A stretch of DNA of 64,000 nucleotides from Erodium maritimum (lineage: Eukaryota; Streptophyta; Magnoliopsida; Geraniales; Geraniaceae): positions 42,526,557 to 42,590,556 of the forward strand of contig OY997594.1 of NCBI GenBank assembly GCA_963921825.1, written 5' to 3'. How positions within the stretch are numbered: position 1 is the stretch's first letter; each line of letters starts with the position of its first letter. The position numbers and the translations under genes are program-made. Positions 12,143-32,689 of the stretch are shown here, piece after piece. The notes beneath the pieces were generated by a model that saw only the letters and a list, made by a program, of their open reading frames with translations, was not told where the DNA came from and searched no databases.

Positions 12143-12361
12143 CGTATGTTGGTAGTTGGGGAATTTTTTGAAATGCTGAACTAGTAAGAACGTTCAGCCA
12201 AGAAGGTTGAAGACGATCTGGCCGAACGGTCAAAGATGTATGTAAATATCAACTAGCCGCACGGCTGATATTCCATCCGATCGGATGACCGTTTTTGTTG
12301 GGTAATTAGCCGTACGACTAATTGCATACACTACAACAACAACATACTCAGTTAGTAAAAC

Positions 12362-14627: not shown

Positions 14628-14629
14628 GG

Positions 14630-15076
14630 TATGTATGTTTCCATTTTCTGATGGACTGTGTGTATTTATTTATTCCTGAATACGGTACTATTTGCTGAGG
14701 ATACTTTGTTTGAATTGCATGTGTTGAATGCATTTCCATTTCCATTACATGTGATGAATGCATTTATGTTTTGGGATATTAGAGATGTATATATATGCAT
14801 GTAGCCGATCGGTAATATAAGTGGCCGAACGGCTACATGAATGAATTGTTACACTTTTAGGGTCTGTTATGTGGACCGATCGGTCATGTGGGTGGTCGAA
14901 TGGTCGGCCGAATGGATTAACAAATCCTATAAACAAATGTCGTTCAAATACCACGATTCACATGAAATTTGATTCAAGTTCAACGGTAAACATTACAACC
15001 CTACTTTATTACCACAAAGACTCTCATATGTAGTTGAAAATTTGAGGTCTTTGTTTCCGATACAAACAAACCCATA
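14630..15076. other. intergenic spacer of MULE-A with GATCGG-type motifs
   Basis: Downstream of the transposase lie repeated palindromic motifs of the GCCGATCGG and GCCGAACGGC type (about 14813-14925). The conserved 3' region of the small minus-strand gene follows, with an AATAAA-type signal on the minus strand near 15005. Nothing coding is seen. Confidence 0.5.
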
Positions 15077-15346
15077 TTACCAACGGATAGTTATCGCGTC
15101 TTGGTGAGTGAAGGACAAGACGAAATGTCGAAGTCCTTCGAGCTGCTCCAACACGATACGCGCATTATTCTCGTCTGCATCTATCCATCCACTTCTATCG
15201 GCCTGTCTCAGCTCGTCCATCAGTTGATCAACCTTCACTTGGACCCAGAGAAGACTTATCCTGACCTTCTGGAGCTTATCCAACCTCTCATTGTGTTCAA
15301 GTTCAACACGTTGTGTTATAATGATGTCTCTTAAAGGTGAAGACAT
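15077..15346 (-). CDS. small coiled-coil-like protein 1 of MULE-A (SP1-A), unknown function
   Basis: An intact 89-codon frame starts MSSPLRDIIITQRVELEHNE and ends LEQLEGLRHFVLSFTHQ plus a short tail. It is charged and leucine-rich with no membrane segment, so a short coiled coil is likely. MULE-B has the same gene at 24931-25200 at the same length, with two stops. A paralogue with the same MSSP start and a similar QLEGL-RFV-SF end lies at 25981-26175. A TATA box on the minus strand (TATAAAAC, 15431-15438) lies about 90 bases upstream and recurs before its relatives. Conservation of start, length and promoter supports a real gene of the transposon. No known family is recognised. Confidence 0.55.
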   Translation of the reverse strand: MSSPLRDIIITQRVELEHNERLDKLQKVRISLLWVQVKVDQLMDELRQADRSGWIDADENNARIVLEQLEGLRHFVLSFTHQDAITIRW

Positions 15347-15430
15347 TGTTGATGAAGTGAGTGAAAGAGTAGTGATGAGTTAGTGAAGAGTAGTGATGAG
15401 TGAAGTGAAGAGGGTTGGAGTGAAGAGTGG

Positions 15431-15438
15431 GTTTTATA
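15431..15438 (-). promoter_or_regulatory. TATA box of SP1-A
   Basis: On the minus strand CCTATAAAACCCACTC precedes SP1-A by about 90 bases. The same string, nearly unchanged, precedes SP1-B (25262-25269) and SP3 (27053-27060). Confidence 0.6.
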
Positions 15439-15540
15439 GGCGTGGTGAGTTCAATAAATGTAAGTTGGGTGGTGGGTTCCATTAATATGGGGTTGGTGGT
15501 GGTTGGGAAGACTTATATGGTGGTTGTGATAAGTTAATCT

Positions 15541-15845
15541 GATGGAGGGATGTTATCATAAAGCGCCGAATGGAGGTCAATAATAGGGTTTGGGGCAGTC
15601 GGATGGAGGGATGGTATCAGAAAGCGTCAGATGGGGTCAATATTAGGGTTTGGGGAAGTGGGATGGAGGGATGGTATCAGAAAGCGCCGGATGAGGTCAA
15701 TCGGATGGAGGGATGGTTTCATAAAGCGCCGGATGAGGTCAATATTATGGTTTGGGGAAGTGGGATGGAGGGATGATATCAGAAAGCGCCAGATGAGGTC
15801 AATCGGATGGAGGGATGGTATCATAAAGCGCCGTATGGGTTCAAT
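15541..15845. repeat. GGATGGAGGGATGGTATCA tandem array in MULE-A
   Basis: About seven units of 30-65 bp contain GGATGGAGGGATGGTATCA, AAAGCGCCGGATG and AGGTCAATATTAGGGTTTGG. The corresponding place in MULE-B (25370-25740) holds a related array with GGCGCCGTTTGAGGTCAGTATT. The array lies upstream of the SP1 promoter. Reading frames inside it are repeat artefacts. Confidence 0.8.
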
Positions 15846-16019
15846 ATACCTATTGTTTTTGTGGGAATGTCCCATATATCACGATTCTCATTAAATGTGA
15901 GTAAAATTCAACCGTAAACATTACAACCCTAATTATTACCACAAAGCCTCACATATGGGGTTGAAAAATGGAGGTCTTTGTTTCCGATACAAACAAACCC
16001 ATAATAACAAGTGGAAGTA

Positions 16020-16077
16020 GTCTTCTAAGTGAAGAACCGTACGAAATGTAAAAGGCCTTCGACCTGGTCCATTTATA
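16020..16077 (-). pseudogene. remnant of small gene SP2 in MULE-A
   Basis: Sixteen codons (MDQVEGLLHFVRFFT and a stop) match the C-terminus of SP2 at 25981-26175. They lie directly against a minus-strand TATA-like box (16071-16077). The body of SP2 and the two genes beyond it in MULE-B have been deleted, fusing a promoter to the tail of SP2. Confidence 0.55.
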
Positions 16078-16267
16078 GGCGTGGTGTGGAGAAAAGGGTG
16101 AAGATCAATCAATGTGAAGTGAAGTGGGTGGTGAGATGTAATTGGGTATTTAATTGGAGTTCTATTAATGCAAAAATTCAGGTATGAGTACAAAAAATCA
16201 GATATGAGTCAAACCATCAAATATATATTCGTCATCAGTCATTCAGAAGTTTTTCAGCTTATACATA

Positions 16268-19200
16268 CTACAAAAGATATTCGTCATCAGTCATCACATG
16301 AATACAATATTTGATGCGAAACTGCGGCACAAGTGTAGCTCGGATGTAGTCTTCGAATTTCAGTTCCGCCAACCCCAACTCGATGAACTTGAGGGTGTAG
16401 ATCCCACTATAGCCGATCCTACCAACAAACACCAATATAATAAGCATGAAATCAAAGACTGTAACTCAAAGTCGTTGGAAATTAATAAGAGTCTCATTCA
16501 TACCTCTTGGCTTGCGGTATGGGTTCCACCCTCTCGAAGGTAAAATCCACGTTGTATGCGGATAATGTCTCCGGTGTCCTGGGAAAAACCCAGAACAACA
16601 TCTTAAGGAGCATGTGGACATACGACGTCATCAAAACATTTAACTCGTACTCGGATATTTGGGGACGATAGCTGGCGTACACTTGGATTTTTCTTCCTTC
16701 TACGTTAACAACCAACAATATCCAATGCATGTTCTTGTGGTTCACTGGAAAATATATCTTCTGCGCAGATGTCCAACTGTAGGGATAGCTATCTGGCTTC
16801 TTCCCTCGAGCATATGCCATGAGTTGGAAGTCCGGTTCTATATCGGCCTCATACTCTGCACAACATAGCTTGTGGAACCCACAATCCAGTACTATATGGG
16901 TCTGCCTGAAAAGATTCTGATAATGTCTTTGTCTGCATAGTATGTCTGACAATGCATCGTCCATATGCTGCACAAAGTTGAGAACAATATAAAATTACGT
17001 ACGTAAAAGGATCCTCATATGCTGCATAAAATAAAATACTAACCTGGGGTGTGACCCATTCGCCAGCGGTTGACAATGCCCGGTAATATGCGGCGGGTAG
17101 GCCTCTGTAGTAAAGTCCGTCCCACAAATTGTAACACACGGTATCAGAGAAATTCTTCAACCGTGTGGGAATCCTAGCTGCAGGATTCCAACTGCGGGTC
17201 ATCCTCTGATCAAGTACACTGATCATCTGGGTTCTCTTCCTCTTTCTTGAACTAGGAGGATCAGGTGAAAATAGGTGAAGGGGAAGGTGAACCACGATCG
17301 CTGCTGGCTCCTGAGGCTTAGAGGGTGCCCCCGGAGCCTGAGACTGTGCCCAATCACCGCCACCTTCATCTTTGTTCTGTTCCTCCTCCCAAGACGACAG
17401 TTTCCGCTGCGGCTGTTGACTGACATCCTCCTTTTCTTCCTCCAGACCTTCCCAAGACGACAGTTGCACCTCCACAGACTTTCCCCCCTCTTCCCCTCCT
17501 CCAAGTACCCTTCCCGCACTACGTGTCTGAGATTCAACAACCACAATCGGTGCGGGAACCTCAACCTGTCCCTCCTCAACCCCTAGCTGAACCTCAACCT
17601 GTCCCTCCTCACCCCTACCTGTCCCTCCTCACCCTTCACCTGAACCTCAACCTGTCCCTCCTTACCCCCCATCTGAACCTCATGGATCATATCCATATCC
17701 GCGGGTACATGGTCAGACTCTCTAACCTGTTCCCGTCTTCCTCTTGCGTCACTTGATCCACGAGGCTAAGATTCAACATCCCTTTGAGATCCGACATGAT
17801 GAGACCGATGAGATAGAGGTGGGCAATGTGATCCTCGGGAGTCGCCACCAGATGTACGGTCGACATGCTCGGTTAGCGGGTCACGGGCAGCGCCTTGGGT
17901 CCGGAGTAGATGAAGGACCTCATCTAGTTTACTCCCGAACTCTCTCTGCAACGCTCCGATGGCGTCCCCAAACTCAGTCCGTACCGCTCCAATGGAGTCC
18001 GCAACCGATTGGATCTTGCCCTGCAATTCTCCGATCTCAACACGGACACCTCTGATATAATCCTGAACCGTCGAATGACCCGCTGTTGCGGCCTGTTCCC
18101 ACTGATGACGAGGGGTCTGGGGTAAGTCTTCTACCCCGATGGAGGCCTCCCGGCAACGAGAGCACTCAGCTACATCCCGAACCAGAACCGGCGGTGTCCG
18201 CTCTGTACCCATCGCCTCATCCCCAGACTGACGATCAGGTGTCGGCTCTCTTCTGGCTGGCTCTGCTTGCTCCATACCCTCATCATCACATTCTATCTCC
18301 CCTCCAGCCTCCAAAATTTCTGCAATCCGCTCAATCGTCCTAACTGATACGTTTTCGGGTATGACTCCCACATTTTGATTATGCGGAAGTGCCCTCTCTG
18401 ATCCTGTGGGTACTAGGACACTCCGAGTCACCTGCACCTGCACATATTTAACCATTACATTCAATTCATATAAACAACCTACTTCCACTGTAAATAAATC
18501 CGTCTACAATTGTATTTTTTTACCCCGGCTTTCCTCAATTCGATTGTAACCTCCTCCGGCGACGAGGCCTTGGGCCAATTCGTGCGCCACTTTAAAAACC
18601 TCGGTAGGACCTGAGTGTAATTTGGGTCCACTGTCCCTCACTTCCTTGCCAGAGCGTCCATACACTCAAATACCAATGTCTGTTACACAAATCAAATTAT
18701 TTATAACCAATACGTAAATTAATTGATAATAATGCTCATAATAATATTCTATATAATGTTTTACGTACCGTAAATATCGGGAGCATACCGCAGATGGTAT
18801 ATGTGGCCACAAGTTTCCCAGGGACGATCGATAGGAACTTGGCTCTCAACTCTAGAATACAATCCTCCGTCAGATGCTGGAAGGAGAGATACCCCCACGG
18901 GTACTTGCTGAACATGTCCAGGTCTTCTACTAACCCCATCCACTTTGGTTCAATGTATTTCGTCACTTTTGTGTTCGATAGCAACACATCAACGACGAAC
19001 AACAGTTGAGCCATCTTGACAATTTTATAATCTGACTCGTTCCTCCGGGTCCTCGATTTCAACCGGTTCTTCACAAGCTCACTCAACTTGTTTATCAGGT
19101 TTACCACAGTCACTCCACGCTTATTACATGAAAAATGTCTCTTCTCAAATGCTGTGGACCCAAATTGTCTCCTCAAATTTGCATCTTCACGGATCGGTGT

Positions 19201-20650
19201 TGAGCAATTCAACCCTGTCATCAATGCGTATTCCTTCAGGGATAACCTGATCGGTTTCCCTTTCACCACGAACCACATTTCGGAGGACCTTCTCACCCTG
19301 GTACTCCTCACTATTAGCGACCACGCCAGGTTGTTGGAGTACATAAACTTCTCCGGTAACCTGGTGAACATCCCGAATGGACCCGCTCTTATTGCTTCAG
19401 CTCTCGGCGGGTCTTCATCCTTCAGCTCATTGAACTTCTCGTCCAACACCTTATACCCACACCTCTGTGTGACACGACAGTCGAAGAACTGGCCCTCTTC
19501 CAGTTGTGTTTCAAGTCATGGAAACCGTTGAGGTACTTCTGACGGAGTTGCACTCGGTATCGAACGAGAACAACTCCGTGCAGAACCTACTTGCTCTTCC
19601 ATTGACTGTAGTAGTAATATTATAATTAACAAATGCAACCTAACTGAAATTGGTAATCTAAAAACCTTAGTAGTAAAGTGTCATTGGCCGAACGGCCATT
19701 CACCAAAAATGTCCTTGGCCGATCGGTAGATCAGAGAGCAACCTTCTTTCCCACTCGGTTCCGACTGACCCCATACGGCGGAGGTTTAGACCTTTCTAAA
19801 GAAGATAAAAAACGCCGAAGTTTTTATGCCATTAAGCGTCATCTGGACCCATTCGAAGGCTTGTGATTGGGGGAAAAACGAAGCCGTAATTGCCCCATTA
19901 ATTTCCGTTTGGGCCGTCGACTGGGCCTGACGGAGCTGATAGGGCCTACCGAGTCGTCGTTTGGGCCGAATCAGCTCCATTTGGCTCAATCCAAAGGATC
20001 TGTTTCGGAGCCAAAACGACATCGTTATGGCTCCCCAATCAGCTCCGAATGGTCCTATCAAACGAAGCTGAGTGGGGATACAACGATGTCGTTTTTCCCC
20101 AATCAACTCCTTTCGATTGGGCCAGACGGAGTTGATTCGCCCCAAATCGACGGCTTTGTAGGCCCAATATGCTTCTTCTGGCCCAATCGAAAGGAGCTGC
20201 TTGGGGACAAAACGACATCGTTGTATCCCCACTCAGCTCCGTTTGGGTCATTCATCCGGCGCTTATTGGCGTCCGTAACGACGGAGTTTTCGCCGGAATC
20301 AGGGCCGTCGGTTCGTTCCAGTCGGAGCTGATTGGGGCAAAACGCCGTCGTTATAGCCCCCAACCAGCTCCGTCTGGAACCATCCGACGGAGATGATTCT
20401 ATCTCCGGCAACTCATCTACAGTGGGCTTAAACGCCGACGTTTTAGCCCCAATCAACGCCATCTGGACCCCAGCCGACGACCTTGATACCTTCTCCGACA
20501 ACGACCCAAACCCCTTCTACGCCTCCCCATTCGCCGTAGAATATAGCCCCTCACCGACGATGAACCCTAACTAAACCCTAGGTTTTGCAATAAGGAAATT
20601 AATCTAAAACCTAAATCAGAAGTTGAAATCGTACGTACCTAGTTCGACAT
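16268..20650 (-). pseudogene. DUF1985/ULP1-like protease gene of MULE-A, broken
   Basis: Reading leftward: a 4-codon first exon (20639-20650, with the fourth codon changed to TAG), a ~1-kb GC-rich intron, a DUF1985 exon (19.6-18.8 kb; FGMFTRLPEKFMYSNNLAW, SLKEYALMTGLNCS), a charged linker (18.5-16.9 kb, with coiled-coil-like GELQGKIQSVADSIGAV), and C48 protease exons (VNHKNMHWILLVVNVEG at about 16.7 kb, SGIYTLKFIE at about 16.4 kb). C48 proteases remove SUMO-type modifiers using His, Asp and Cys. Here the His is present, the Asp position reads Ala (QVYASYRP), and the Cys position reads Ser. At least one stop in the DUF1985 exon and one frameshift in the linker mark it as dead. It parallels the MULE-B copy exon by exon. 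Confidence 0.8.
19680..20520. repeat. GC/CpG-rich repeats in first intron of the ULP-like gene (MULE-A)
   Basis: Short motifs recur in both orientations: AAAACGACATCGTT, CCCAATCAGCTCCG and GGCCCAAT, with GGCCGAACGGCC and GGCCGATCGG at the left edge. The same region exists in MULE-B (31540-32110). Its location between the first and second exons is fixed in both copies. Confidence 0.65.
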
Positions 20651-20906
20651 TGTTGCTGTGGAAGTTCCTGACGACGGCGTCCTTGCTTGCTCGGAGATGA
20701 TCGGGAGAGATGAAGTAGAAGAGAGAATTTCGATTTTCTGAGTTTGAATCAGAGACGAAGATGAAGAGACGACGAAGAAAGTGCAAGGGGTATAACCGGT
20801 ACTTCATAATTTTTGATTTAAAAGAAAAACATAAAATCGAATTTAAAATTACGGAGGCTACCCCTCAAAGAAATTATCACGCGGAGGCTTTTTGAATAAT
20901 TTCTCC

Positions 20907-21372
20907 TGTACCCTGATACATATCCATTCATCCATCCAAATCTCTCTACAACCCATTCACTAATCTCAACTTCATTCACAACTCTCTGACCCATTTTTCG
21001 TATCCATCCAATATCTCCGAAACACAAGTTTCCTCTCACCCTCCGAGCCGTCGTCGACCACCGAGCAGCCATGAGAGTGGTCAAGGCGCCGACCACGATC
21101 TCGGATGCCATGTCCCTTGAACCCTCTCTCCATCACTCGTCTCTCTCTCATATTCTTCTTAGCCACCACCAGATCCAGATCTGAAAAGCTCAGATGAAGG
21201 TGGAGAAACCCAGATGGAGAAATGGGGTTGGCTCAATGGTTCCATCTCAAAAGTCTCACACAATTTTGGTGGTCTCTCTGTCTTCGTTCCTTTTCCTCTA
21301 CAGATAGACCACATGTTTCCCTTACAAATTTTACTTTTTTTGTAATAAAAGAACAAAAAGGTTTGGTCCAAA
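20907..21372. other. spacer between MULE-A and MULE-B
   Basis: This is 466 bases outside both sets of inner inverted repeats. On the minus strand a frame (20818-21111) starts MASEIVVGALTTLMAARWST, and a second overlaps it, but neither resembles a known family. The sequence could be a captured gene fragment, or original DNA between two insertions. Confidence 0.35.
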
Positions 21373-22049
21373 GGACAAATTATTAAAAAGGCCTTCTGAG
21401 GCTAATATATTGCAAAAGACCTTCACATGTTATATGTTTTGTAAAAAGACCTCCACTTTATGTTTTCCAATATTACCCTTTTGTAATATTGGAAAAAAAT
21501 ACCTAAATCTCAGCCCCCTTTTCGCACCCAGAAAAAAGCCGGCCGACGACCTTCATATCCAAAAAAAATTCCGGCGTCCACCACGTTCCCCGTCGCCGTC
21601 CACCACCTTCCAAAGCCCATTGAGTCCATTGAAGCAATCCTCCAAGTAAGGTAAGCTTGATTTCATCCTAAATTTAAAGCTAATGAATTTAAGTTTTAGG
21701 TTTGAGTAGATCTTCGAATGTATGAGTGTAACAACGATAAGTTATGGTTTAATGTGTGTGTGAACGTAGTGAAATAAACAAATGGTAGAATCGGGTGGAA
21801 TAGATTCGTATGTCGTAGGTTTTGTGAATTTTCTGAAATGGTGAACCAGTAGGGCCGGTCGGCGTCAGATGGGGAAGACGAGGGACCGATCGGCCTCGGA
21901 AGCACGTGAATATATACCAGCCGGACGGCGTATATGCAAACCGATCGGCGGGCCGATCGGAAGGGTTATGAGCGGGACGGCTAATTGCATATACTAAATC
22001 ATACTCGATTAGTACAATATGTCCTTATGGGGTTGTAATTGTTACAAGA

Positions 22050-24491
22050 ATGGGTGAAATTTTAGTCCGTGCTACTTACGGTGGTGAATATAAGCTAGTG
22101 GATGGGAAGTATGATTGGATATCAACAACAAACAATGGTTGTGTTAGCCTTATTGTGGACGATAATACAACGCTGAAGAAAGTGAAGGACCGGCTGTGTT
22201 CCGAAATCGGGGTGAATGAAAGGGAGATAGAATTGAATCTTAGTTTTGTAGGTGTTATGCCCAATTTTGTAGGAGTTATCCCAATAGAGAAAGTGTACGA
22301 TGATTTCACTCTTCGGGGTTTTGTACTTGAGAACAAAATTATAGAGACGAGAACCGTGTTATGTGTAGAGCTGAGCAAGAAAGATACAGTTTGTGGGGAA
22401 GATGATACTGTTGAACAGGGGGGGAACAATGTACCGGAAGCTGTGGCATATGAGTATGATGAACATGACAATGGGGGGCATGACGCTTATTTTGAAGTTG
22501 GTATTTGTAGTGTTGCAGGTAATCCAGATAGTGTAGATAACCCAGTTATTCGGCGGAGAGAACGTGATACGGAAGCACAAGCATCATCGCCTACGCCACC
22601 ATCGGCAAGCTTGGACAATATCGAGGAGAACCGTGAAATGGTGGAGTATGTTCATAGAAATGAGGAGTTTCCCGCGGATTCGGTGGATCCAGAACAAAGC
22701 ACTGTCGGTTTTAGGGATGGGTCAAGTTTAGTAGTTGGTAAAGAGTTTCCGAACAAGAGAGCACTGATGAGTTATCTGAAAGACATTTCAATTAAGGGTG
22801 ATTTTCTGATAAAACGTGATAGATCTTCAAAGACTTTATACATTGCAAAATGTGCTGGTGCTACTTGTGGGTGGAGAGTGCGTGCAGCAAAAGATCGCGG
22901 ATCCCGTGAAACGTTCTCCATTAGAACGTATGAGTCTTTACATACTTGTTTGGTTAGTGAACGGAACTCCCGAAAAGGTAAATTGACTACGGAAGAGATT
23001 ACGTGTAGGTTGGTAAAAGAAAATAGTGAAGTAGAATATCTTCCCAAACCACGTGCCATTCAAAACAATTTGGAGTTGGAGAAGATGGGGTTTTATAAAT
23101 ACTGGCAATGTTGGAGGGCAAGAACAGTGGCGATGATTAAACTTGTAGGGGACCCAGCTTCAAGTTATGGACTACTCCCTGTTTATTTGCAGCAGGTTTG
23201 GAAGATGAATGCAGGTGTAGTAACTCATTTGGAGGTGGATGCAGAGAGTAGATTTAAATATGTTTTCATAGCATATCGGCCATGCATTGAGGGATTTAAC
23301 TATGCCTTGAGAAAAGTGATCTTAGTAGATGGTACGTGGTTGAAGACAAGATATAAAAGGGTACTGATAATTGCAAGCGGGGAGGATGGTAATGGTCACC
23401 AATATCTTGTGGCTTGGGCTGTAGTTGACTCGGAGAACAACGAATCATGGAAATGGTTCTTCCAAAAGTTGAGGTCGGAGATCCCGGATGGGGAAGACTT
23501 GGTTATCCTTTCGGATAGACATGTAAGTATCAGCAATGCAGTGAAGATCGTCTACCCAGAAGCCCAACATGGGCATTGTAGGTGACATCTGACCCAAAAT
23601 GTGAGAGAGAAGGTAGGGGCTAAGGAAAAAAACAGATTATCGAAGTTGTTTCAAGAAGTTGCTGATGCGTACACAATGGAGAGGTTCTATGACAAGTACG
23701 AGCAACTGAAAGAAATGTACCCGAAGGCGGCGGAATATCTAGAGGAGACAACAATACAACGTTGTCAATGGGCGAGATCTCACTTCGTAGGGTCGCGGTA
23801 CAATATAATGACAACGAACGGGGTTGAGTCTATCAACAATGTAATAAGAGCAGCGAGAAAGCTGCCTGTTATAAAGTTGTTGAACAGGATGCAGGAAAGG
23901 GTTACCGAATGCTTCATGCAACATCTGGATGTGATGAACAAGATGCCGGACTCCCATATTGTAACTCCAAAGGTAGAGAAAATCATGTCTGCAAGCAACA
24001 AGCTAGTCAAGCAGATGCAGATAACACCACTGAACATACACGGCGAGTATCAGGTGAAGGATGAACATAATGACGTATTGGTTCATTTGGGGATGAGGCA
24101 ATGCAATTGCCGGGAGTTTGACATAGACAAAATTCCTTGTGCCCATGCCCTAGCGTGTTGTGAGCATGCCAATATAGATCTGTATGACTTGTGCTCGAAC
24201 TATTACACGCTACAAAAATGGGCTGAAGCATATTCTAGGACTGTGTACCCAGTGTCCCGTGCAGAAGAGTGGAATATAGATGAATTTGATCGTGAAGTTC
24301 TTATCGATGTTCTTCCTCCAGACTATGAAGCGAAACGCGGGAGACTGCAGGAAAGAAGAATTCCTTCAGAAGGTGAGGTTCAACGAGCGACTCAAGCGGC
24401 TCCAAAGCATCCCAGGAAATGTGGACATTGTGCCACCGTTGGTCACAACAGACGAACATGTCATTCGCTTCGATCTGCTTCTAATGTTTAG
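22050..24491 (+). pseudogene. MURA-like transposase of MULE-B, one in-frame stop
   Basis: This is a single open frame of 814 codons apart from one TGA at 23583-23585, where MULE-A has TGG (Trp in the HCRWHL motif). Order: N-terminal PB1-like segment (VRATYGGEYKLVDGKYDW, VDDNTTLKKVKDRL), MuDR DNA-binding domain (FPNKRALMSYLKDISIKGDF, CGWRVRAAKDRG), MULE catalytic domain (VDGTWLKTRYK with the first acidic residue, VILSDRH with the second), SWIM finger (CNCREFDIDKIPCAHALACC), and a CCHC knuckle (CGHCATVGHNRRTC). Length and domain set are those of complete MURA proteins. The ATG at 22050 is preceded by an AT-rich leader. A single nonsense change in an otherwise complete frame suggests a fairly recent death, or an allele-specific or sequencing difference. 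Confidence 0.88.
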
Positions 24492-24930
24492 GGTATGTAT
24501 GTTTCCATTTATGACAGACTGTGTGTATTTATTTATTCCTGATTATGGTACTATTTGTTGAGTGTACTTTGTTTGAATTGCATGTGTTGAATGCATTTCC
24601 ATTTTCATTACATTTGCAGAATGCAGTTATGTTTGGGATAGGATAGTGGTGTATATGAATGAAGCCGATCGGCAACATAGTGAGCCGAACGGCTTAACTG
24701 TGAAAAAATAAGATCTCCTCTGTTGCCCGATCGGTGCAGGTTGTGGCCCAGGCGGCGCCGATTGGGTTAACAAGTCATATAAAACCAAACATCGTTCAAA
24801 TACCACGAGTCACATGTAGTTTGATTCAATGAAAACGGTAAACACATTACAACACTACTTTATTACCACAAAGACTCTCATATGGATATGAAAATTTGAG
24901 GTCTTTGTGTCCGATACAAACCAACCCATA

Positions 24931-25200
24931 TTACCAAAGGGTAGTGCCCTCGTCTTGGTGAGTGAAGGACAAGACGAAGTGTCGCAGTCCTTCGAGCTGC
25001 TCCAACACGATACGAGCATTATTCTCGTCCGCATCTGTCCATCCAGTTCTATTCGCCTGTCTCAGCTCGTCCATTAGTGCATTAGCCTTCACTGAAACCC
25101 GAAGAAGACTTATCCTAATCTTCTACAGCTTATCCAGCCTCTCCTTGTGTTCAAGTTCAACACGCTACGCCGTAAGGGTGTGTCTTAAAGGTGAAGACAT
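24931..25200 (-). pseudogene. small gene SP1-B of MULE-B, two stops
   Basis: This 270-base counterpart of SP1-A aligns end to end (MSSPLRHTLTA, then RVELEHKERLDKL, ARIVLEQLEGLRHFVLSFTH) but has two internal stop codons, a TAG near codon 12 and another near codon 26. The promoter string (TATA on minus, 25262-25269) and the 3' region (GAGGTCTTTGT-TCCGATACAAAC-AACCCATATTACCA on +) are kept. Confidence 0.6.
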
Positions 25201-25261
25201 TGTGGATGAAGTGAGTGAAGAGTAGTGATGAGTGAGTAGTGAGTGAAGATGGTTGGAGTGG

Positions 25262-25269
25262 GTTTTATA
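25262..25269 (-). promoter_or_regulatory. TATA box of SP1-B
   Basis: Minus-strand TATAAAAC lies about 65 bases before the SP1-B ATG, with the same flanks (GTGGG...GGCGTGGTGAG on +) as at SP1-A. Confidence 0.6.
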
Positions 25270-25369
25270 GGCGTGGTGAGGTCCATAAATGTTAGTTGGG
25301 TGGTGGGTTCCATTAATATGGGGTAGGTGGATGTTGGGAAAACAGGGTTAGTGGTTGGGATGACTTAAT

Positions 25370-25740
25370 TTGATGGAGGAATGGCCCCAAACGGCGCCTT
25401 ATGAGGTCAGTATTAGGGTTAGGGTGGAGGGATGGCCCCAGACGGCGCCGTTTGAGGTCAGTATTAGGGTTAGGGTGGAGGGATGGGGCCAGAAGGCGCC
25501 GTTTGAGGTCAGTATTAGGGTTAGGGTTGTGTTGTTGTCAGACTGCGCTGGATGATGTCAGTATTAGGGTTAGGGTAGGGTTGTTCTCAGACTGCGCCGG
25601 ATGATGTGTCAAACTGCGCCGGATGGTGTCAATCGGACACTGAAACGGCGCCGTATGAGGTCAATATTAGGGTTAGGTGTAGGGTTGTTCTCAGAATGCG
25701 CCGGATGAGGAGCCAATCTGCGCCGTTTAGGGACCAATTA
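25370..25740. repeat. GGCGCC/AGGTCAGTATTAGGGTTAGG array in MULE-B
   Basis: Units of about 55 bp contain ACGGCGCCGTTTGAGGTCAG and TATTAGGGTTAGGGT, degenerating rightward. It is the positional counterpart of the 15541-15845 array in MULE-A. The TTAGGGTTAGGG strings look telomere-like but are part of this longer unit. Confidence 0.75.
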
Positions 25741-25980
25741 CTATTGTTTATAATTTGGAAGGTCCCATTCCATTAACATTCAACGAAAAACATTACAACC
25801 CTAATGAATACCACAAAGCCTCACATCTGGGAAATGGAATTGGTCTCCTAAGTGAAGGACCGTACAAGCTGTGAGTACAATTCAACACTAATTATTACCA
25901 CAAAGCCTCACATACTACATTGGAAAATTGAGGTCTTTGTAAGCCGATACAAGCAAACTCACATTAGCAAGTGGGATCTC

Positions 25981-26175
25981 TTAATAGAAGGACCGTACGA
26001 AACGTAATAGGCCTTCGAGCTGGTCCATGGCCTCCTTCAACTCCTGCTTGAGTTGATCTGCCTTATATTGCACCATCTGAAGAGTTTCCTTGATCTGGTG
26101 GAGATCGTCCAATATCGCAATGCATTCTTCCTCAGCAAGCCGTGGTGTATTGCTGCCCGAAATAGGTGAAGACAT
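25981..26175 (-). CDS. small coiled-coil-like protein 2 of MULE-B (SP2-B)
   Basis: An intact 64-codon frame starts MSSPISGSNTPRLAEEECIA, continues with a heptad-like stretch (ILDDLHQIKETLQMVQYKAD, then QLKQELKEAMDQLEG) and ends LLRFVRSFY. The MSSP start and the QLEGL-RFV-SF end match SP1, so SP1 and SP2 are paralogues. The shared 3' flank (GAGGTCTTTG ... GATACAA) shows that a whole gene unit was duplicated. A TATA-like box is at 26231-26235 on the minus strand. MULE-A keeps only its last codons. Function is unknown; a short protein-protein interaction helix is the most that can be inferred. Confidence 0.5.
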   Translation of the reverse strand: MSSPISGSNTPRLAEEECIAILDDLHQIKETLQMVQYKADQLKQELKEAMDQLEGLLRFVRSFY

Positions 26176-26340
26176 TGTTGATGAACTTAGTAAAGACTAT
26201 TGATGAGTTCATTGAAGTGAATATTAGGGTTTATAAGGGTAAGTAAAGAATATATTCCTTCCGTAAAGTATGTCCCATCTAATCAACGTCGGAAGGAATA
26301 TATTCATTCCGTAAAGTATGTCCCATCTAATCGACGTCGA

Positions 26341-26545
26341 AAGGAAATTTGGGACCCAATCTGCGCAGATTGAGATCCAAACTGCGCAGATTGGGACCCA
26401 AACTGCGCATATTGGGATCCAATCTGCGCATATTGAGTCCCAATCTGCGGAGTTTGGGACCCAGTCTGCGCATATTGAGGACCAAACTGCGCCGATTCAG
26501 GCCTCAATCCGCGCAGGTTGAGTCCCAATCTGCGCAGTTTGGGTC
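26341..26545. repeat. CTGCGCAGATTGGGACCCAA array
   Basis: Seven to eight units of about 27 bp (AACTGCGCAnATTGnGacCCA, with variants) lie between the promoter of SP2 and the end of SP3. Frames on both strands read as repeated peptides and are not genes. Confidence 0.85.
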
Positions 26546-26641
26546 CATAGGAAGACCGATCGGCCCACAGCAAGCAATGTAAAACCCAATAACTTATTTT
26601 ATTTCATCCAAACAGCATAATCATACAGCCTCATTACTACA

Positions 26642-26989
26642 TTACGCATCTAGCATAAAGTTAAGGAGCCTCTCCTCAGCTTCTCTAGATCTGTCCATCC
26701 ACTCTACGAAACGTTGAAACCATGGAGGCTCCTCGTAAGGAAGCCTCACAATGTCACGATCGTTTACAAAAGGAGGGAAATCAAATGGGTGTTCACCATC
26801 TAGAGGTGGAGGACATTCTACATTCTTCTGTTGGACGAGTTCCTCTATTCGGTCCAACCGCTGAATTGAGTCATCGAGTATGCGGTCGTACTCAACGGCC
26901 CATGGTGGTGGCGCCACAAAGACCACTGTTCCGTCGTTCTCCCGCCGCCTCCACCTACGCTCAAGACGAGGATCGTGGTTGGGTACCAT
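26642..26989 (-). CDS. small protein 3 of MULE-B (SP3), unknown function
   Basis: An intact 115-codon frame. A basic N-terminus (RLERRWRRREN) is followed by PPWAVEYDRILDDSIQRLDR, IEELVQQKNVECPPPLDG, then LPYEEPPWFQRFVEWMDRSR and an E/L-rich end finishing LLNFMLDA. It is paralogous to SP4 (27290-27696), sharing W-(A/S)-VEY, the helix with LD--EEL or QLEAL, C-PPL, EEP-WF and the R-L-N-L-A end. Its TATA box on the minus strand (27053-27060) is the same string found before SP1. No known family is recognised; intact length and a diverged paralogue next door argue that it has been under selection. Confidence 0.5.
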   Translation of the reverse strand: MVPNHDPRLERRWRRRENDGTVVFVAPPPWAVEYDRILDDSIQRLDRIEELVQQKNVECPPPLDGEHPFDFPPFVNDRDIVRLPYEEPPWFQRFVEWMDRSREAEERLLNFMLDA

Positions 26990-27052
26990 CGTGGCACAAA
27001 AATTATACCTACAAAATGAGGTTGGAGTGAAAACTATTCAAGTGGAGAGTGG

Positions 27053-27060
27053 GTTTTATA
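27053..27060 (-). promoter_or_regulatory. TATA box of SP3
   Basis: Minus-strand TATAAAACCCACTC lies about 65 bases before the SP3 ATG, in the same context as SP1-A and SP1-B. SP4 has a shorter version (TATAAAT, 27844-27850) about 150 bases before its ATG. Confidence 0.55.
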
Positions 27061-27289
27061 GGCGTGTAAGGAATGAAGAGGGTTGGAGTTGGTGTGTCAA
27101 CGCATTAATGGAGCCATTAATGTGTTGACTGCGTTGATTGTAGTGCATGCATTGGGACGTGCATATTTTGTATAGGAAATGTATCAAATAAAAGCATAAA
27201 AGCATTGTCATTCATTGCATTAATTATACAAAACATAAACATCATTCATTCAAGTACCAAAATAATTATCCAAAAAATAAAAACAAACA

Positions 27290-27696
27290 CTAGGCAGCAA
27301 GCAGACGGTTAATGAGCCTCTGTGTAATTTCTTGGTTTCGAACCATCCACTTTCTGTACTCCCGGAACCAAGCAGGCTCCTCCCAAGAATGAAGAAGGTC
27401 ATCCTCGTTCATCCGCGGTTGAATAAATAGGTTGTCACCAGGAGGGAGTGGAGGACATGGTAATTTTTCTCGCGCATGAGGGCCTCCAGTTGGTCCAGCT
27501 GCTGGTCTGCTTCTTCAAGTAACCGGTAGTACTCTACTGACCATGCTGGTTCCGGTGCTTGATACAGTCGTTCGGGCATTCGGACTATTCTGCCGTCGGC
27601 CAACATTGTGACGTATTCTCCGGCTAGCTCCCGTCTTATCCACGCACGCTCCGCACGCTCCGCACGCTCTGCACGATTCGCTTGGTCGGGATCCAT
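27290..27696 (-). pseudogene. small gene SP4 of MULE-B, one frameshift
   Basis: The N-terminal part starts MDPDQANRAERAERAERAWI, a repeated RAE tract, then runs through PAWSVEYYRLLEEADQQLDQ and LEALMREKN. At about 27460 the frame must shift by one base, after which PCPPLPPGDNLFIQPRMNED, WEEPAWFREYRKWMVRNQEI and TQRLINRLLAA follow to a stop at 27290. Both halves align with SP3, so this is one gene with a single 1-base lesion in or beside an A-run. Unknown function. Confidence 0.5.
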
Positions 27697-28094
27697 TCTG
27701 TCATAAACATATACGTGGTTACACTACTAAAACAACAAACACATCTAAAAAATTATAATGCAAGAACATTATTCGAATACCTATTCCTTGAATGCTGAGA
27801 GTGAAGGGGGTTGGAGTACAAATAATGGGGTAGCTAAGCCCCCATTTATAGGCTGCTGATAATGAATAGGGTTGGAGTGGGTGGATGAGTGGGTGTGTAC
27901 CCATAAATGTGTCTTGGGTGGAGAGACATATTAATGGGAGACATTGATATGTTGCGTTTCTTGGATGTAGTGATTGAATAGGGACGTGCAGATTTTGTAC
28001 AAGATATGTATCCATGAGATATGAGTCAAACCATCAAAAATATATTCGTCACTTCGCAGTCAAAAGTTTATCAGTCATCCAACATTTGTACAGT

Positions 28095-31000
28095 CTACAG
28101 AAGATATTCGTCATCAATCATCACGTGAATACAATATTTGATGCGAAACTGCGGCACAAGTGTATGTCGGATGTGGTCTTTGAATTCCAGTTCCGTCATC
28201 CCCACCTCGATGAATTTTAGGGTGTAGATCCCACTATCGGCCATCCTACAAACAAACACCAATATAATAAGCATGACATACAAGACTGTACTGCAAAGGT
28301 AAAATGAATAAGTCTGATACTTACTTCACGGCTTGCGGTATGGGTTCCACCCTCTCGAAGGTAAAATCCGCGTTGTATGCGGCTAATGTCTCCGGTGTCC
28401 CGGGTAAAATCCGGAAGAGCATCTTCGGGAGCATGTGCACATACTCCCGAACTCTGATATCTGGGGACGGTAGTTGTCGTACACTTGGATTTTTCTTGCT
28501 TACACGTCCACAACCAACAATATCCAGGGCTTGTTCTTGTGGTTCACTGGAAAATAAATCTTTTGCGCAAACATCCAACTGAAAGGATAGAGATCCGGCT
28601 TCTTCCCTCGAGAAGAGTTCATGAGCTCAAGGTCCGGTTCTATATTCGCCTCATACTCTGCACATCACAGCTTGTGGAACACACAATCCAGCACTACATG
28701 GCTCTGCCCGAACACATTCGGAAAATGTCGTTGTCTGCACCGTATGCCTGACAACGCATCGTCCATATGCTGCACAAAGTTGAAAACAATATAAATTATA
28801 TATTGCCAGGAAAAATATACTCATATGCTGCTTAAAATAAAATACTAACCTGCGGTGTGACCCATTCGCCAGGGGTTGCCAATGACCGGTAATATTTGGC
28901 GGGTAGGCCTCTGTAGAGGACTCCGTCGTGCAAACCGGTACGCACGGTGCCAGAGTAATTCCTCAACCGATGGGGAATCTTCGCTGCAAGGTTCCAACTG
29001 CGGATCAACCTCTGATCAAGGACACCGAGCAACTGGGTCCTCTTCCTCTTTCTGGAACTGGGCGGATCAGGTTCAAATAGGTGACGGGGAAGGTTAACCA
29101 CGATCGATGGTGGCTCCCGAGGCTCCGAGGGTTCCCCCAGAGCCTGAGTCTGTGCCCCCGGAGCTTGCGACTGTGCCTCATCCCCGGCACCTTCATCGTC
29201 AGTCGGTTCCTCCTCCCAAGACGACAGTTCCCGCGCAGGAGTTTGACTGACCTCCTCCTCCCCTTCGACCTCTAGACCTTCCCAAAAACTCGACAGTGAC
29301 ACCTCCATAGACTTACCCCCCTCTTCCCCTCCTCCAAGTACCCCTCCCGCACTACGTGTCTGAGAATCAACTACCACGATCGGTGCAGGAACCTGAACCT
29401 GTCCCTCCTCAACCCCTTGCTGAACCGGAACCTGTCCCTCCTCAACCCCCTGCTGTACGGCAACCTGTCCCTCCTCAACCCCCTGCTGTACCGCAACTTG
29501 TCCCTCCTCAACCCCCTACTGAACATCAACCTCACCCCCCATCTCAACCTCATGGACCATATCCATATCCCGGGGTCCATGGCTAGACTCTCCAACCTGT
29601 TCCCGTCTTCCTCCTGCGTCACCTGATCCACGAGGCTGAGCTTCATCATCGCTTTGAGATCCGGCTTCATGCGACTGATGAGACCGAGTCGGGCAATGTG
29701 ATCCTCGGGAGTCGCCACCAGATGCACGATAGTCAGGCCCGGGCAACGGGTCACGGGCAGCGCCCTGGGTCCGGAGTAGATGAAGGATCTCATCTAGTTT
29801 GCCCCCCAACTCTCTCCGCAACGCTCCGATGGCGTCCCCAAACTCAGTCTGTACCGCTCCAATAGAGTCCACAACGGATTGGATCTTGCCCTGCAACTCT
29901 CCTATCTCAACGCGGACACCTCTGATATGATCATCTGCTGCGGCCTGTTCCCCCTGACGACGAGGGGTCTGGGGTAACTCTCCTCCCCCGATGGTGGCCT
30001 CTTCCCGGCGACGAGAGCACTCAGCTCCATCCCCTACCGGATCCGGCGGTGTCGGCTCTGTAGCCATCACCTCATCCCCGGACTGACGATCAGGTGTCGG
30101 CTCCCTTTCAACTGGCTCTGCTTGCTCCATACCCTCATCATCCCATTCTATCTCCCCTCCAGCCCCCAAAATTTCTGCAATCCGCTCAAGCGTCCTATCC
30201 GCTACCCTGTCGGGTATGACTCCCACATTTTGATTATGCGGAAGTGCCCTCTCTATTTCTGTGGGTATTAGGACACCCTGAGTCACCTGCACCTGCACAC
30301 ACATAACCATTACATTCAATTCATATAACCAACCTACATCTACAATTACACGTCTACACTTTTATTTTTTACCTCTTCTTTCTGAAATTCGGTTGTCACC
30401 TCATCCGCCGACGGGGGCTTGGCCCATTTCGTCTGCCACTTCAAAAACCTCGGTAGGTCCTCACTATACTGTGGGTCCACCGTCCCCCACTTACTTGCCA
30501 GTGCATCCATAGACTCAAATACAAAAGGCTGTTACACAAATCAAATTATTAATAACCAATACGTACATTAATTGATAATAATGCTCTTATTCAAATTGTA
30601 TTAAATGTTTTACGTACCGTAAATAACGGGAGCAGACCGCATATGGTGTATGAGGCCCCCTGCCTCCCAACGATCGCTTGGAACTTCGCTCTCAACTCTC
30701 GAATACAATCCTCCCTCATATGCCGGAAGGAGATATACCCCCACGGGTACCGGTTGAACAACTCCAGGTCTTCTACTAATCTCATCCACTTTGGCTCAAT
30801 AGGTGTCGTCACTTTTGTGTGAGGTATCAACGCATCAGTGACGAACAACAGCTGAACCATCTTCACAATATTGTAATCTGGCTCGGTCCTCCTGGTCCTC
30901 GGTTTCAACCAGGTAGTCACAAGGGCGGTCAACTTGTTTGCCAGGTCTAGTGGAGACACTCCACGCAGGTTCGAATCAAAATGTCTTTTCTCGAATGCTG

Positions 31001-32207
31001 TGGAAGTCAATTGCCTCTGAAAATTTTCATCTCCAGTTCTGGGTCTTGAGCAATTCAATCCCGTCATCAGTGCGTATTCCTTCAGGGACAACCTGATCGG
31101 TTTCCCTTTCAGCACGAACCACATTTCGGAGTCCCTTCTCACCGTGGTACTCCTGACTATTAGCATCCACGCCAGGTTGTTGGAGGGCTGGAACTTCTCC
31201 GGTAACCTGGTGAACATCCCGAATGGACCCGCTCTTAATGCTGCAGCTGTCAGCGGGTCTGCATCCTTCAGCTCATTGTACTTCTCATACAACACCTTAT
31301 ACCCACACCTGGTTGTCACACGACAGTTGAAGTACTCCCCATCTTGCAGTTCTGTTTCAATTCTTCGAAACCGTTGAGGTGCTTCTGATGGAGTAGCACT
31401 CGGTATCGAAACAGAACCTTCTTCCTCTTCCACTGACTGTATTATGATTATAAGATGCATCCTAACATTATCCAGTAATCCTAATTGTAGTTGTAATATT
31501 ATCATTATAAAATAACATTAACTAGTAATCAAAACTGTCATGGGCCGAACGGCCTTTCACCTAATTGTCCTAGGCCGATCGGGCAACAGAGAGTTTGATC
31601 ACTTTCCCATCCGGCTCAGACTGACCCCATTCGGCGCCGTTTGGACCTTGCTCCACAAGATCAAAACGCCTCGTTTTACTACCGATATGCGCCGTCTGGA
31701 GCCTTTGGAAGGCAAATGATTGGGGGCCAAAACGACGTCGTCAGTGGTGAAACGGTGTCATTTTGGGCCCTTCACTGGGCCTCACCGAGCTTATTGGGCC
31801 GTGGATTGGGCCTCAGTGGGCCCAACCTACTTCGTTTGGTTCAACCTCATGGAGCTGGTCGGTCCCAAAACGACGTCGTTATGGGGTCTCATTCGGCTCA
31901 TACTGGGCATATCAATCGGAGCGTGTTGGTGACAAAACGTTGTCGTTGTGTCCCCAACCTGCTCCGTCAGGAACTCCGGCGACTCAGTGGGCTAAAACGC
32001 CATCGTTTTAGCCCCAATCAGCGCCGTCAAGACCCTAGTCGACGACACTGATTCCTTCTCCGGCAACGACCCTATTCCCTTCTACGCCTCCCCCATTCGC
32101 CGTAGCCTCACCGGCGATTTACACTAACTAAACCCTAGGTTTTGCAAAAGGGACCTAAATCTAACACAAATTGCAGGAGTTCAAATCGCACGTACCTGGT
32201 TCGACAT
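28095..32207 (-). pseudogene. DUF1985/ULP1-like protease gene of MULE-B, broken
   Basis: Six exons are visible: 32196-32207 (MSNQ), 30618-31436 (DUF1985), 30373-30528, 28851-30286 (linker), 28325-28769 and 28095-28245 (C48 protease), all with GT-AG borders and matching phase. Motifs: FGMFTRLPEKFQPSNNLAW, SLKEYALMTGLNCS, PWGYISFRHMREDC; linker heptads (GELQGKIQSVVDSIGAVQ) and four 11-residue GVEEGQVAVQQ repeats; RGLPAKYYRSLATPGEWVTP; protease core with QVYDNYRPQ and DSGIYTLKFIE. The catalytic Asp is kept, but the His-Trp site reads Pro-Trp and the Cys site reads Ser. Three in-frame stops occur: a TAG where sister repeats have CAG (29516-29518), a TGA near 28670 and a TAA near 28496. C48 enzymes cleave SUMO-like modifiers; ULP-like genes in MULEs are known, their role is not. 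Confidence 0.82.
31540..32110. repeat. GC/CpG-rich repeats in first intron of the ULP-like gene (MULE-B)
   Basis: The same motif set as in MULE-A: AAAACGACGTCGTT, TGGGCCTCA, CCCAATCAGCGCCGTC, with GGGCCGAACGGCC and GGCCGATCGG at the left edge. It occupies the intron between the 4-codon exon and the DUF1985 exon. Confidence 0.65.
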
Positions 32208-32689
32208 TAAGTCGGAATTGTAGGAATTTCCTCTCGCCGGCGTCGTTGCTTGCTCGGAGATGATCGGGACAGATGAAGTCGTCGACAATCCTTTTTCTGA
32301 CTTTGACTCAGTGACGAAGACGAAGAGCCAAAGAAGAAGAAAGGGCGAGGGTATATTGGGCAGTTCATAATGTTTTCAATTAAAAGAAAAACAAAAATTC
32401 GATTTAATTCGAATGCAAAATTACCGAGGCTACCCCGCAAATATATTAGCGTGATAAGGCCCTTTCCAACAATTCCTATTTGGATGGGTATGGGTTGTTT
32501 AATAGGGAGTTTGATTAAATTGTTCTTTTTTGGGGTGTTATGATTTTTGCGGACTAATTGTGAAGAGGATTATGATATTTTAGACATGTTGATTAAATTT
32601 TTATGTTTTTTTGTTCTTCTCTGCAAAATATTGTGGAATCGTGAAAACGAAAGGGGCAGAAATGTAGAATTCCATTAGGTAGTTGTATA

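What the first reader, a model, noticed from the sequence alone, without database searches (positions are those of the whole stretch)
24931..27850. Repeated small-gene units between transposase and protease gene of the MULE
Four minus-strand small genes lie in a row: SP1 24931-25200, SP2 25981-26175, SP3 26642-26989, SP4 27290-27696. SP1 and SP2 share the MSSP start, the QLEGL-RFV-SF end and the 3' flank. SP3 and SP4 share W-(A/S)-VEY, a helical segment, C-PPL and EEP-WF. Three have the same TATA string (CCTATAAAACCC) upstream. SP1-A (89 codons), SP2-B (64) and SP3 (115) are intact although the neighbouring large genes are dead. I know of no described accessory gene set of this kind in MULEs. 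They may be small coiled-coil partners of the transposase or of the ULP-like protein.
Basis: partly seen in the sequence, partly recalled or inferred. Interest (0 to 1): 0.78.

Follow-up and report, generated by a model that had tools for sequence, protein, structure and literature searches.

The report
Small gene cluster inside plant transposon
Inside two neighbouring, mostly dead copies of a plant jumping gene lie small genes in duplicated pairs, beside arrays of a palindromic DNA motif that probably serve as docking sites for the element's own anti-silencing protein.

Summary
SP1–SP4 exist at the stated places and form two duplicated pairs, SP1/SP2 and SP3/SP4. SP1-A, SP2-B and SP3-B are open; SP1-B has two in-frame stops, SP4-B a one-base frameshift. 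The 12-base TATA string occurs three times, but only two of these belong to the four B genes. The element is a MULE with a MULE/SWIM transposase and an opposite-strand DUF1985 + Ulp1 gene region, the domain make-up reported for VANC/Kaonashi anti-silencing genes.

Main addition: SP1 and SP2 lie downstream of arrays of a 20-base palindrome (consensus CTCAAACTGCGCAGTTTGAG), mostly at 21-base steps in the SP2 array. A weight matrix built only from the arrays finds 16 further sites in the elements' other non-coding DNA (0.27 expected), none in their gene regions and one in 44.6 kb outside (1.23 expected). VANC targets are described in this way.

Protein-level constraint is modest for SP3/SP4 and unproven for SP1/SP2. 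No relatives were found, but no plant collection was available. Best reading: small helical accessory genes in the VANB position of a VANC/Kaonashi-type MULE, two of them beside the element's own target motif. A new variant of a known kind; protein function is inference.

The parts
24931..25200 (-). SP1-B: 90-codon frame including stop, MSSP start; broken by two in-frame TAG codons
15077..15346 (-). SP1-A: intact 89-codon frame in copy A
   Evidence: model with helices 4-52 and 59-80, mean pLDDT 83
25981..26175 (-). SP2-B: intact 64-codon frame, paralogue of SP1
   Evidence: Z 14.9
16025..16072 (-). SP2-A relic: only the last codons remain, directly behind a TATA-like box that begins at 16079
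26642..26989 (-). SP3-B: intact 115-codon frame
   Evidence: model with two long helices, mean pLDDT 70.5
27290..27696 (-). SP4-B: paralogue of SP3, broken by a one-base deletion
25260..25271 (-). TATA-like box CCTATAAAACCC of SP1-B, 71 nt before its ATG
27051..27062 (-). TATA-like box CCTATAAAACCC of SP3-B, 73 nt before its ATG
26227..26238 (-). TATA-like box CCTTATAAACCC of SP2-B, 63 nt before its ATG (the script used 26242 and printed 67; recounted from the sequence)
27845..27852 (-). TATA-like box CCTATAAA of SP4-B, 156 nt before its ATG
15429..15440 (-). TATA-like box CCTATAAAACCC of SP1-A, 94 nt before its ATG
25374..25730 (.). Palindromic motif array upstream of SP1-B: 9 GCGC-centred sites, spacings 51,51,49,49,22,32,50,22
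26349..26547 (.). Palindromic motif array upstream of SP2-B: 8 GCGC-centred sites at spacings 21,21,21,42,21,22,21 (9 sites with the weight matrix)
15541..15850 (.). Palindromic motif array upstream of SP1-A: 5 GCGC-centred sites (6 with the weight matrix)
31606..32032 (.). Seven further sites of the motif upstream of the DUF1985 gene of copy B (centres 31616, 31636, 31690, 31898, 31920, 31962, 32022), not used to build the matrix
19770..20468 (.). Seven further sites upstream of the DUF1985 gene of copy A (centres 19780, 20044, 20238, 20260, 20326, 20368, 20458), not used to build the matrix
24726..24766 (.). Two further sites between the 3' ends of transposase and SP1-B (centres 24736, 24756), not used to build the matrix
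22050..24491 (+). Transposase of copy B (DBD_Tnp_Mut, MULE, SWIM); one in-frame stop at 23583-23585
28100..31517 (-). DUF1985 (VANC-like) gene region of copy B, in pieces; three pieces of its Ulp1 stretch scored no Pfam hit at E 0.01
16494..19515 (-). DUF1985 + Peptidase_C48 gene region of copy A, in pieces
   Evidence: PF09331 88.8 bits (cut-off 35.1), PF02902 30.2 bits (cut-off 20.7)
21367..32484 (.). Copy B with degenerate terminal inverted repeats (21367-21411 and 32440-32484)
   Evidence: score 42, best of 500 shuffles 30
7587..20907 (.). Copy A with degenerate terminal inverted repeats; interrupted by an insertion at 8051-12142
   Evidence: score 38, best of 500 shuffles 31

Best explanation
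SP1–SP4 are small protein genes of a multi-gene MULE of the VANC/Kaonashi type. They arose as two duplicated pairs (SP1/SP2 and SP3/SP4) in the position between transposase and VANC-like gene that VANB takes in Arabidopsis VANDAL21. Shown: two tandem copies of the element; a MULE transposase; an opposite-strand gene region with DUF1985 and, in copy A, Ulp1; the homology within pairs; a TATA-like box 63-156 bases before each start; motif arrays upstream of SP1 and SP2; the same palindromic motif in other non-coding DNA of the element, mainly upstream of the DUF1985 gene. Inferred: the VANC-like protein binds the palindrome, probably as a dimer, and keeps these regions active, so that SP1 and SP2 are made when the anti-silencing protein is present. 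Inferred with less support: the SP products are small helical proteins that bind a larger protein of the element, the VANC-like protein or the transposase.
For: Domains: PF10551, PF03108, PF04434, PF09331 and PF02902 above their curated cut-offs. VANC proteins carry DUF1985 and DUF287 and bind short motifs that form tandem repeats in non-coding parts, among them the region upstream of VANA21 and introns of VANB21 and VANC21 (PMC5735166, passages). A review says that Ulp1-carrying VANC genes are the Kaonashi (KIU) genes and that KIU is one of three coding genes of its elements (PMC13317346, passages). Motif: matrix made from the 22 GCGC-centred array sites; at score 10 or more, 16 sites in 5,528 bases of element non-coding DNA not used to build it (0.27 expected from 30 block-wise Markov simulations), 0 in 12,862 bases of the element's gene regions, introns included (0.9 expected), 1 in 44,624 bases outside (1.23 expected); at score 8 the counts are 22, 1 and 1. 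The array sites match their own reverse complement at a mean of 4.64 of 8 flanking positions, 71 other GCGC sites at 2.32. SP3/SP4: amino-acid identity 0.462 against 0.370 in a neutral simulation (P 0.0035), no stop in 104 codons (P 0.026), pN/pS 0.68 (bootstrap 0.49-0.93); by eye their DNA similarity stops at the stop codons. Codon usage ranks the SP frame first of six in 5 of 6 segments. The regions upstream of SP3 and SP4 are homologous (Z 15.1), those of SP1 and SP3 weakly alike (Z 5.4 and 5.5).
Against: No relative outside this window was found; the collections are not of plants, and a control search with part of the transposase in viral contigs was also empty. SP1-A/SP1-B dN/dS of 0.45 is matched by a wrong frame. 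SP1/SP2 cannot be told from neutral divergence (amino-acid identity P 0.28, no stop P 0.11, pN/pS 0.79 with bootstrap 0.52-1.22). In the codon-usage test 8 of 36 other ORFs also score above zero, the two highest inside the arrays, and the second half of SP4 ranks second of six frames. The region upstream of SP2 resembles none of the other upstream regions (Z -0.9 to 1.7). Foldseek gave no match at E 0.001 or better for either model. No site of score 10 or more lies upstream of SP3 or SP4. Helical phasing of site spacing at 10.5 bases holds for the training arrays (P 0.0001) but not for the ten other spacings (P 0.20), and the best-fit period was 9.7. The element has degenerate TIRs, while the review calls Vandals non-TIR. 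Binding, expression and partnership could not be tested.
Confidence: 0.5

Rival explanations
1. SP1 and SP2 (perhaps all four) are not protein genes but duplicated regulatory units (array, TATA-like box, conserved 3' flank) that happen to hold open frames; the DNA, not the peptide, is what is kept.
For: SP1/SP2 divergence is not distinguishable from neutral; identity by codon position is 0.73/0.60/0.68, with no excess of third-position change; ORFs of 89 codons are common by chance in such DNA; the SP1/SP2 3' flank keeps 62 invariant columns of 115 in the four copies aligned.
Against: SP3/SP4 amino-acid identity exceeds the neutral expectation (P 0.0035). SP1-A/SP1-B has no gap in 270 bases, while the 3' flank alignment has 40 gapped columns, 23 of them an overhang at the end and 17 internal. 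The 3' hairpin is no stabler than shuffles (z -0.59 to +0.42).
Confidence: 0.25
2. The four units are exons of one VANB-like gene whose introns hold the motif arrays, as described for VANB21.
For: Introns of VANB21 and VANC21 of Arabidopsis VANDAL21 hold the tandem motif repeats (PMC5735166, passages). The units are colinear and on one strand.
Against: Each unit has its own TATA-like box, ATG and stop. The units are paralogues of each other in pairs. Splice sites were not modelled.
Confidence: 0.12
3. The units are fragments of host genes captured by the MULE (Pack-MULE style).
For: MULEs often capture gene pieces (PMC2528002, passages).
Against: Start-to-stop frames with TATA-like boxes in duplicated pairs, SP1 in both copies; no Pfam family above its cut-off. 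No host proteome could be searched, so this is not excluded.
Confidence: 0.08
4. On the arrays alone: they are binding sites of the transposase, or merely unstable tandem repeats, rather than targets of the VANC-like protein.
For: Some transposases bind subterminal repeats (recalled). A second palindrome, CCGATCGG, occurs 11 times in the window, all in the two elements and 8 of them beside the transposase gene.
Against: The GCGC palindrome recurs outside the tandem arrays, 14 of 16 independent sites upstream of the DUF1985 gene, which growth of a simple repeat does not explain.
Confidence: 0.3

Closest known systems
Kaonashi (KI) MULEs / KIU-type VANC elements (Hoen 2006 and Sasaki 2022, known here only through passages of the review PMC13317346, and PMC2528002)
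   Same: MULE transposase; Ulp1 gene in reverse orientation to it; more than two genes; target motifs in non-coding DNA
   Different: Here the middle position holds four small genes in two pairs; the motif is a 20-base GC-centred palindrome; degenerate TIRs of about 40 bases are present, while KI-MULEs are called non-TIR
Arabidopsis VANDAL21/Hiun (VANA, VANB, VANC)
   Same: Three-part layout with a gene of unknown function besides VANA and VANC; DUF1985 in VANC; tandem target motifs in non-coding regions
   Different: VANDAL21 motif is YAGTATTAY (PMC5735166, passages); whether VANB resembles any SP could not be tested, as no VANB sequence was at hand
MuDR of maize (mudrA, mudrB)
   Same: MULE with a second gene of unknown function, apparently required for integration (PMC6446971, passages)
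   Different: One accessory gene; no DUF1985/Ulp1 gene or motif arrays are mentioned in the passages seen
ULP-carrying MULEs of grapevine and melon (PMC2528002, passages)
   Same: ULP region downstream of the transposase in either orientation, in TIR and non-TIR elements
   Different: No small gene set is mentioned in the passages seen

Membership tests
Mutator-like element (MULE) | MULE-type transposase domain | tested here: met
   PF10551 72.9 bits in both copies, cut-off 27.6
Mutator-like element (MULE) | Target-site duplication of 8-11 bases | tested here: inconclusive
   No convincing pair in a scan around ends of which the left ones later proved wrong; not rescanned by script at the ends found
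VANC / Kaonashi-type anti-silencing gene | DUF1985 domain | tested here: met
   PF09331 76.5 bits (copy B) and 88.8 bits (copy A), cut-off 35.1
VANC / Kaonashi-type anti-silencing gene | Ulp1 peptidase domain on the same strand (Kaonashi subset) | tested here: met
   PF02902 30.2 bits in copy A, cut-off 20.7; three pieces of copy B gave no hit. That both domains are in one transcript was not tested.
VANC / Kaonashi-type anti-silencing gene | DUF287 domain (shown for VANC proteins in PMC5735166) | tested here: not met
   Not among the hits at E 0.01 for ten frames of the two elements; not every exon was scanned. That some members lack it is recalled, not read. For this reason the gene is called VANC-like, not VANC.
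VANC / Kaonashi-type anti-silencing gene | Short target motif concentrated in the element's non-coding DNA, partly as tandem repeats | tested here: met
   16 independent non-coding sites against 0.27 expected, none in the gene regions. That the motif is a target is inference.
VANC / Kaonashi-type anti-silencing gene | Protein binds the motif and removes DNA methylation | not testable with these tools
   Needs an experiment
VANDAL (non-TIR MULE) | Absence of long terminal inverted repeats | tested here: inconclusive
   Degenerate TIRs of about 40 bases; 5 of 6 pairings of the four ends beat all 500 shuffles, one (A left with B right, 31 against a best of 34) did not; the review calls Vandal non-TIR
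VANB | Sequence homology of SP proteins to VANB | not testable with these tools
   No VANB sequence or plant protein collection at hand; only gene order suggests it

The most novel reading that the evidence does not exclude
A MULE has built a module of small helical genes by duplication and has placed its own anti-silencing protein's binding arrays in front of two of them. The micro-proteins would then be made only when the element is de-silenced and would tune the VANC-like protein or the transposase, closing a feedback loop.
Probability: 0.2. Interest if true: 0.72.

Novelty: new variant of a known kind. Interest (0 to 1): 0.5.

Why it matters
How transposons escape plant silencing has been worked out for a few Arabidopsis VANDALs. 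This element offers a Ulp1-carrying VANC-like gene with a clear, testable palindromic motif, and an unexplained gene set in the position of VANB, whose function PMC6446971 (passages) gives as unknown. If the SP genes prove real, they are candidates for missing partners of the anti-silencing system.

Tried and rejected
Tried without result. Pfam for SP1-A, SP2-B, SP3-B and the first frame of SP4-B: best E 0.021, none reaches its curated cut-off. PDB sequence profiles: best E 0.071 and 0.33. Foldseek on both models: nothing at E 0.001. Relatives of SP3 in genome contigs and viral contigs: none; SP1, SP2 and SP4 were not searched there. Part of the transposase as control in viral contigs also found none, so that collection says nothing about plant relatives; no such control was run in genome contigs. 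Rfam at gathering scores: no match in 12000-33000. The 3'-flank hairpin of SP1/SP2: the same hairpin is predicted in the minimum-energy fold of all four copies but is no stabler than shuffles. Copy A's TATA box at 16079 as the old SP4 promoter: its upstream region resembles that of SP1 (Z 4.5 and 4.0) more than that of SP4 (Z 2.9), so whether copy A lost SP3/SP4 or never had them is left open. dN/dS of four larger A-B gene stretches is 0.64, 0.94, 0.76 and 1.00, with upper bootstrap limits of 1.00 or more; SP1 at 0.45 (0.22-0.87) is lower, but see the wrong-frame control; a fifth stretch ('Ulp N') aligned only 7 codons and was dropped. Helical phasing of the motif sites is not upheld outside the training arrays.

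Literature: ten searches, read as listings of at most 20 papers each, showed no title or abstract that describes such a small gene set. Fu 2013 and Sasaki 2022 are not held, so a description there cannot be excluded. Passages, not whole texts, were seen of PMC5735166, PMC10398659, PMC2528002, PMC6446971, PMC13317346 and PMC7385966.
Full report
What was checked. The window carries two tandem copies of one Mutator-like element. Their two main blocks match at 85.7% (3.4 kb) and 80.1% (4.0 kb). The plus strand encodes the transposase (DBD_Tnp_Mut, MULE and SWIM domains), the minus strand a DUF1985 gene region with, in copy A, a Peptidase_C48 (Ulp1) domain. The four small units lie between them on the minus strand. 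The host is taken to be a plant from these families and from a GT47 exostosin gene at 42.9-44.0 kb; this is inference, the species is not known, and no genome is held.

Element ends. Degenerate inverted repeats of about 40 bases mark the ends of both copies: B 21367-21411 with 32440-32484 (score 42, best of 500 shuffles 30), A 7587 with 20907 (score 38, best shuffle 31). Of the six pairings of the four ends, five beat all 500 shuffles; A left with B right (31) did not (34). Copy A is interrupted at 8051-12142 by an insertion that begins TG, ends CA and has CGTAT on both sides, as an LTR element would. The MULE's own target-site duplication was not resolved.

The small units. SP1-A (89 codons), SP2-B (64) and SP3-B (115) are open; SP1-B has two in-frame stops and SP4-B a single-base deletion. 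SP1/SP2 and SP3/SP4 are paralogous pairs (Z 14.1-14.9 against 500 shuffles). SP2 also resembles the first half of SP4 (Z 8.1); I take this for helical composition, since three other cross-pairs gave Z between -0.1 and 0.9, but a distant common origin is not excluded. Upstream regions of SP3 and SP4 are homologous (Z 15.1), those of SP1 and SP3 weakly alike (Z 5.4 and 5.5); that of SP2 resembles none of the others (Z -0.9 to 1.7), although the SP1/SP2 DNA similarity runs 42 bases upstream of the start (blastn 15200-15388 with 26029-26217). TATA-like boxes lie 63 to 156 bases before the starts (the 67 printed for SP2 is a slip of my coordinate).

Are they protein genes? ORF length does not decide it: 20% of 1,000 simulated regions hold an ORF of 115 codons or more. 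For SP3/SP4 (104 aligned codons) amino-acid identity is 0.462 against a neutral 0.370 (P 0.0035), stops are absent (P 0.026) and pN/pS is 0.68 (0.49-0.93); the protein-guided alignment favours the coding frame somewhat. For SP1/SP2 (63 codons) neutrality is not rejected (P 0.28 and 0.11; pN/pS 0.79, 0.52-1.22). SP1-A/SP1-B gives dN/dS 0.45, but frame +1 gives 0.448; the bootstrap of the true frame is 0.22-0.87. Codon usage trained on 3,146 codons of the element's large genes puts the SP frame first of six in 5 of 6 segments and second in the sixth; 8 of 36 other ORFs of 60 codons or more in the elements also score above zero. I put real coding at about 0.75 for SP3/SP4 and 0.6 for SP1/SP2 (judgement).

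The arrays. Tandem arrays lie upstream of SP1-B, SP2-B and SP1-A. Their units share a 20-base near-palindrome centred on GCGC; in the SP2 array it recurs at 21,21,21,42,21,22,21 bases. A symmetrised matrix from these 22 sites was scanned over the window, with elements taken as 12143-20876 and 21807-32448 and gene regions taken whole, introns included. At score 10 or more it finds 24 sites in the arrays (training), 0 in element gene regions (0.9 expected), 16 in other element non-coding DNA (0.27 expected) and 1 outside (1.23 expected). Fourteen of the 16 lie upstream of the DUF1985 gene (7 in each copy) and two between the 3' ends of transposase and SP1-B. None lies upstream of SP3 or SP4. Spacing follows a 10.5-base period in the training arrays (P 0.0001) but not demonstrably elsewhere (P 0.20), and the best-fit period was 9.7. 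A second palindrome, CCGATCGG, occurs 11 times in the window, all in the two elements, 8 of them beside the transposase gene.

Reading. VANC proteins of Arabidopsis VANDALs carry DUF1985 and bind short motifs that form tandem repeats in non-coding regions of their own family (PMC5735166, PMC10398659; passages seen). A review says that VANC genes with Ulp1 are the Kaonashi genes, one of three coding genes of their elements (PMC13317346, passages). The element here has DUF1985 and Ulp1 (DUF287 was not found) and the same kind of motif layout, so its GC palindrome is best read as the target of its own VANC-like protein. That binding is inference. The SP genes occupy the position of VANB: in VANDAL21 the locus numbers VANC21 At2g23480 and VANB21 At2g23490 and VANA21 At2g23500 (recalled) put VANB in the middle. 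Homology to VANB could not be tested.

What the SP proteins do. AlphaFold2 gives SP1 as a helical hairpin (mean pLDDT 83) and SP3 as two long helices with a loose middle (mean pLDDT 70.5), from alignments of only 2 and 3 rows. Small helical proteins of this kind often act by binding a larger partner (general knowledge); the stretch between DUF1985 and Ulp1 of the large gene also looks coiled-coil by eye (29519-30310). Partnership is a guess that I would give about 0.3.

Verdict. The element is a known kind; the small gene set with motif arrays in front of two members is a variant that I did not find in the listings and passages seen, and two papers likely to describe relatives could not be read.

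Noticed in passing
window 8051-12142: Insertion of 4.1 kb in copy A, TG...CA ends, 5-bp flanking repeat CGTAT; its last 0.9 kb recurs at 50246-51154. It looks like a long solo LTR or an LTR element without a second LTR.
   Followed up: partly
window 12277, 14805, 14876, 19719, 21886, 21941, 21953, 24665, 24727, 26556, 31575: Palindrome CCGATCGG: all 11 occurrences in the 64-kb window lie in the two MULE copies, 8 of them flanking the transposase gene. A second protein-binding motif is possible.
   Followed up: partly
window 51150-52130: Another, different MULE transposase N-terminal part on the minus strand (DBD_Tnp_Mut), directly beside a copy of the repeat found at 11247-12142.
   Followed up: no
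window 14985-15076, 24838-24930, 15921-16024, 25875-25980: The 3' flank of SP1/SP2 is strongly conserved among four copies and folds into the same hairpin, without extra stability over shuffles.
   Followed up: partly
window 16025-16079: Copy A carries a TATA-like box fused directly to the last codons of SP2, a deletion-like junction at a short shared ATGG.
   Followed up: partly
window 42919-44027: Host gene with Exostosin GT47 domain.
   Followed up: no
window 1580-2083: DUF4283 frame, typical of plant LINE-like elements (that use is recalled).
   Followed up: no
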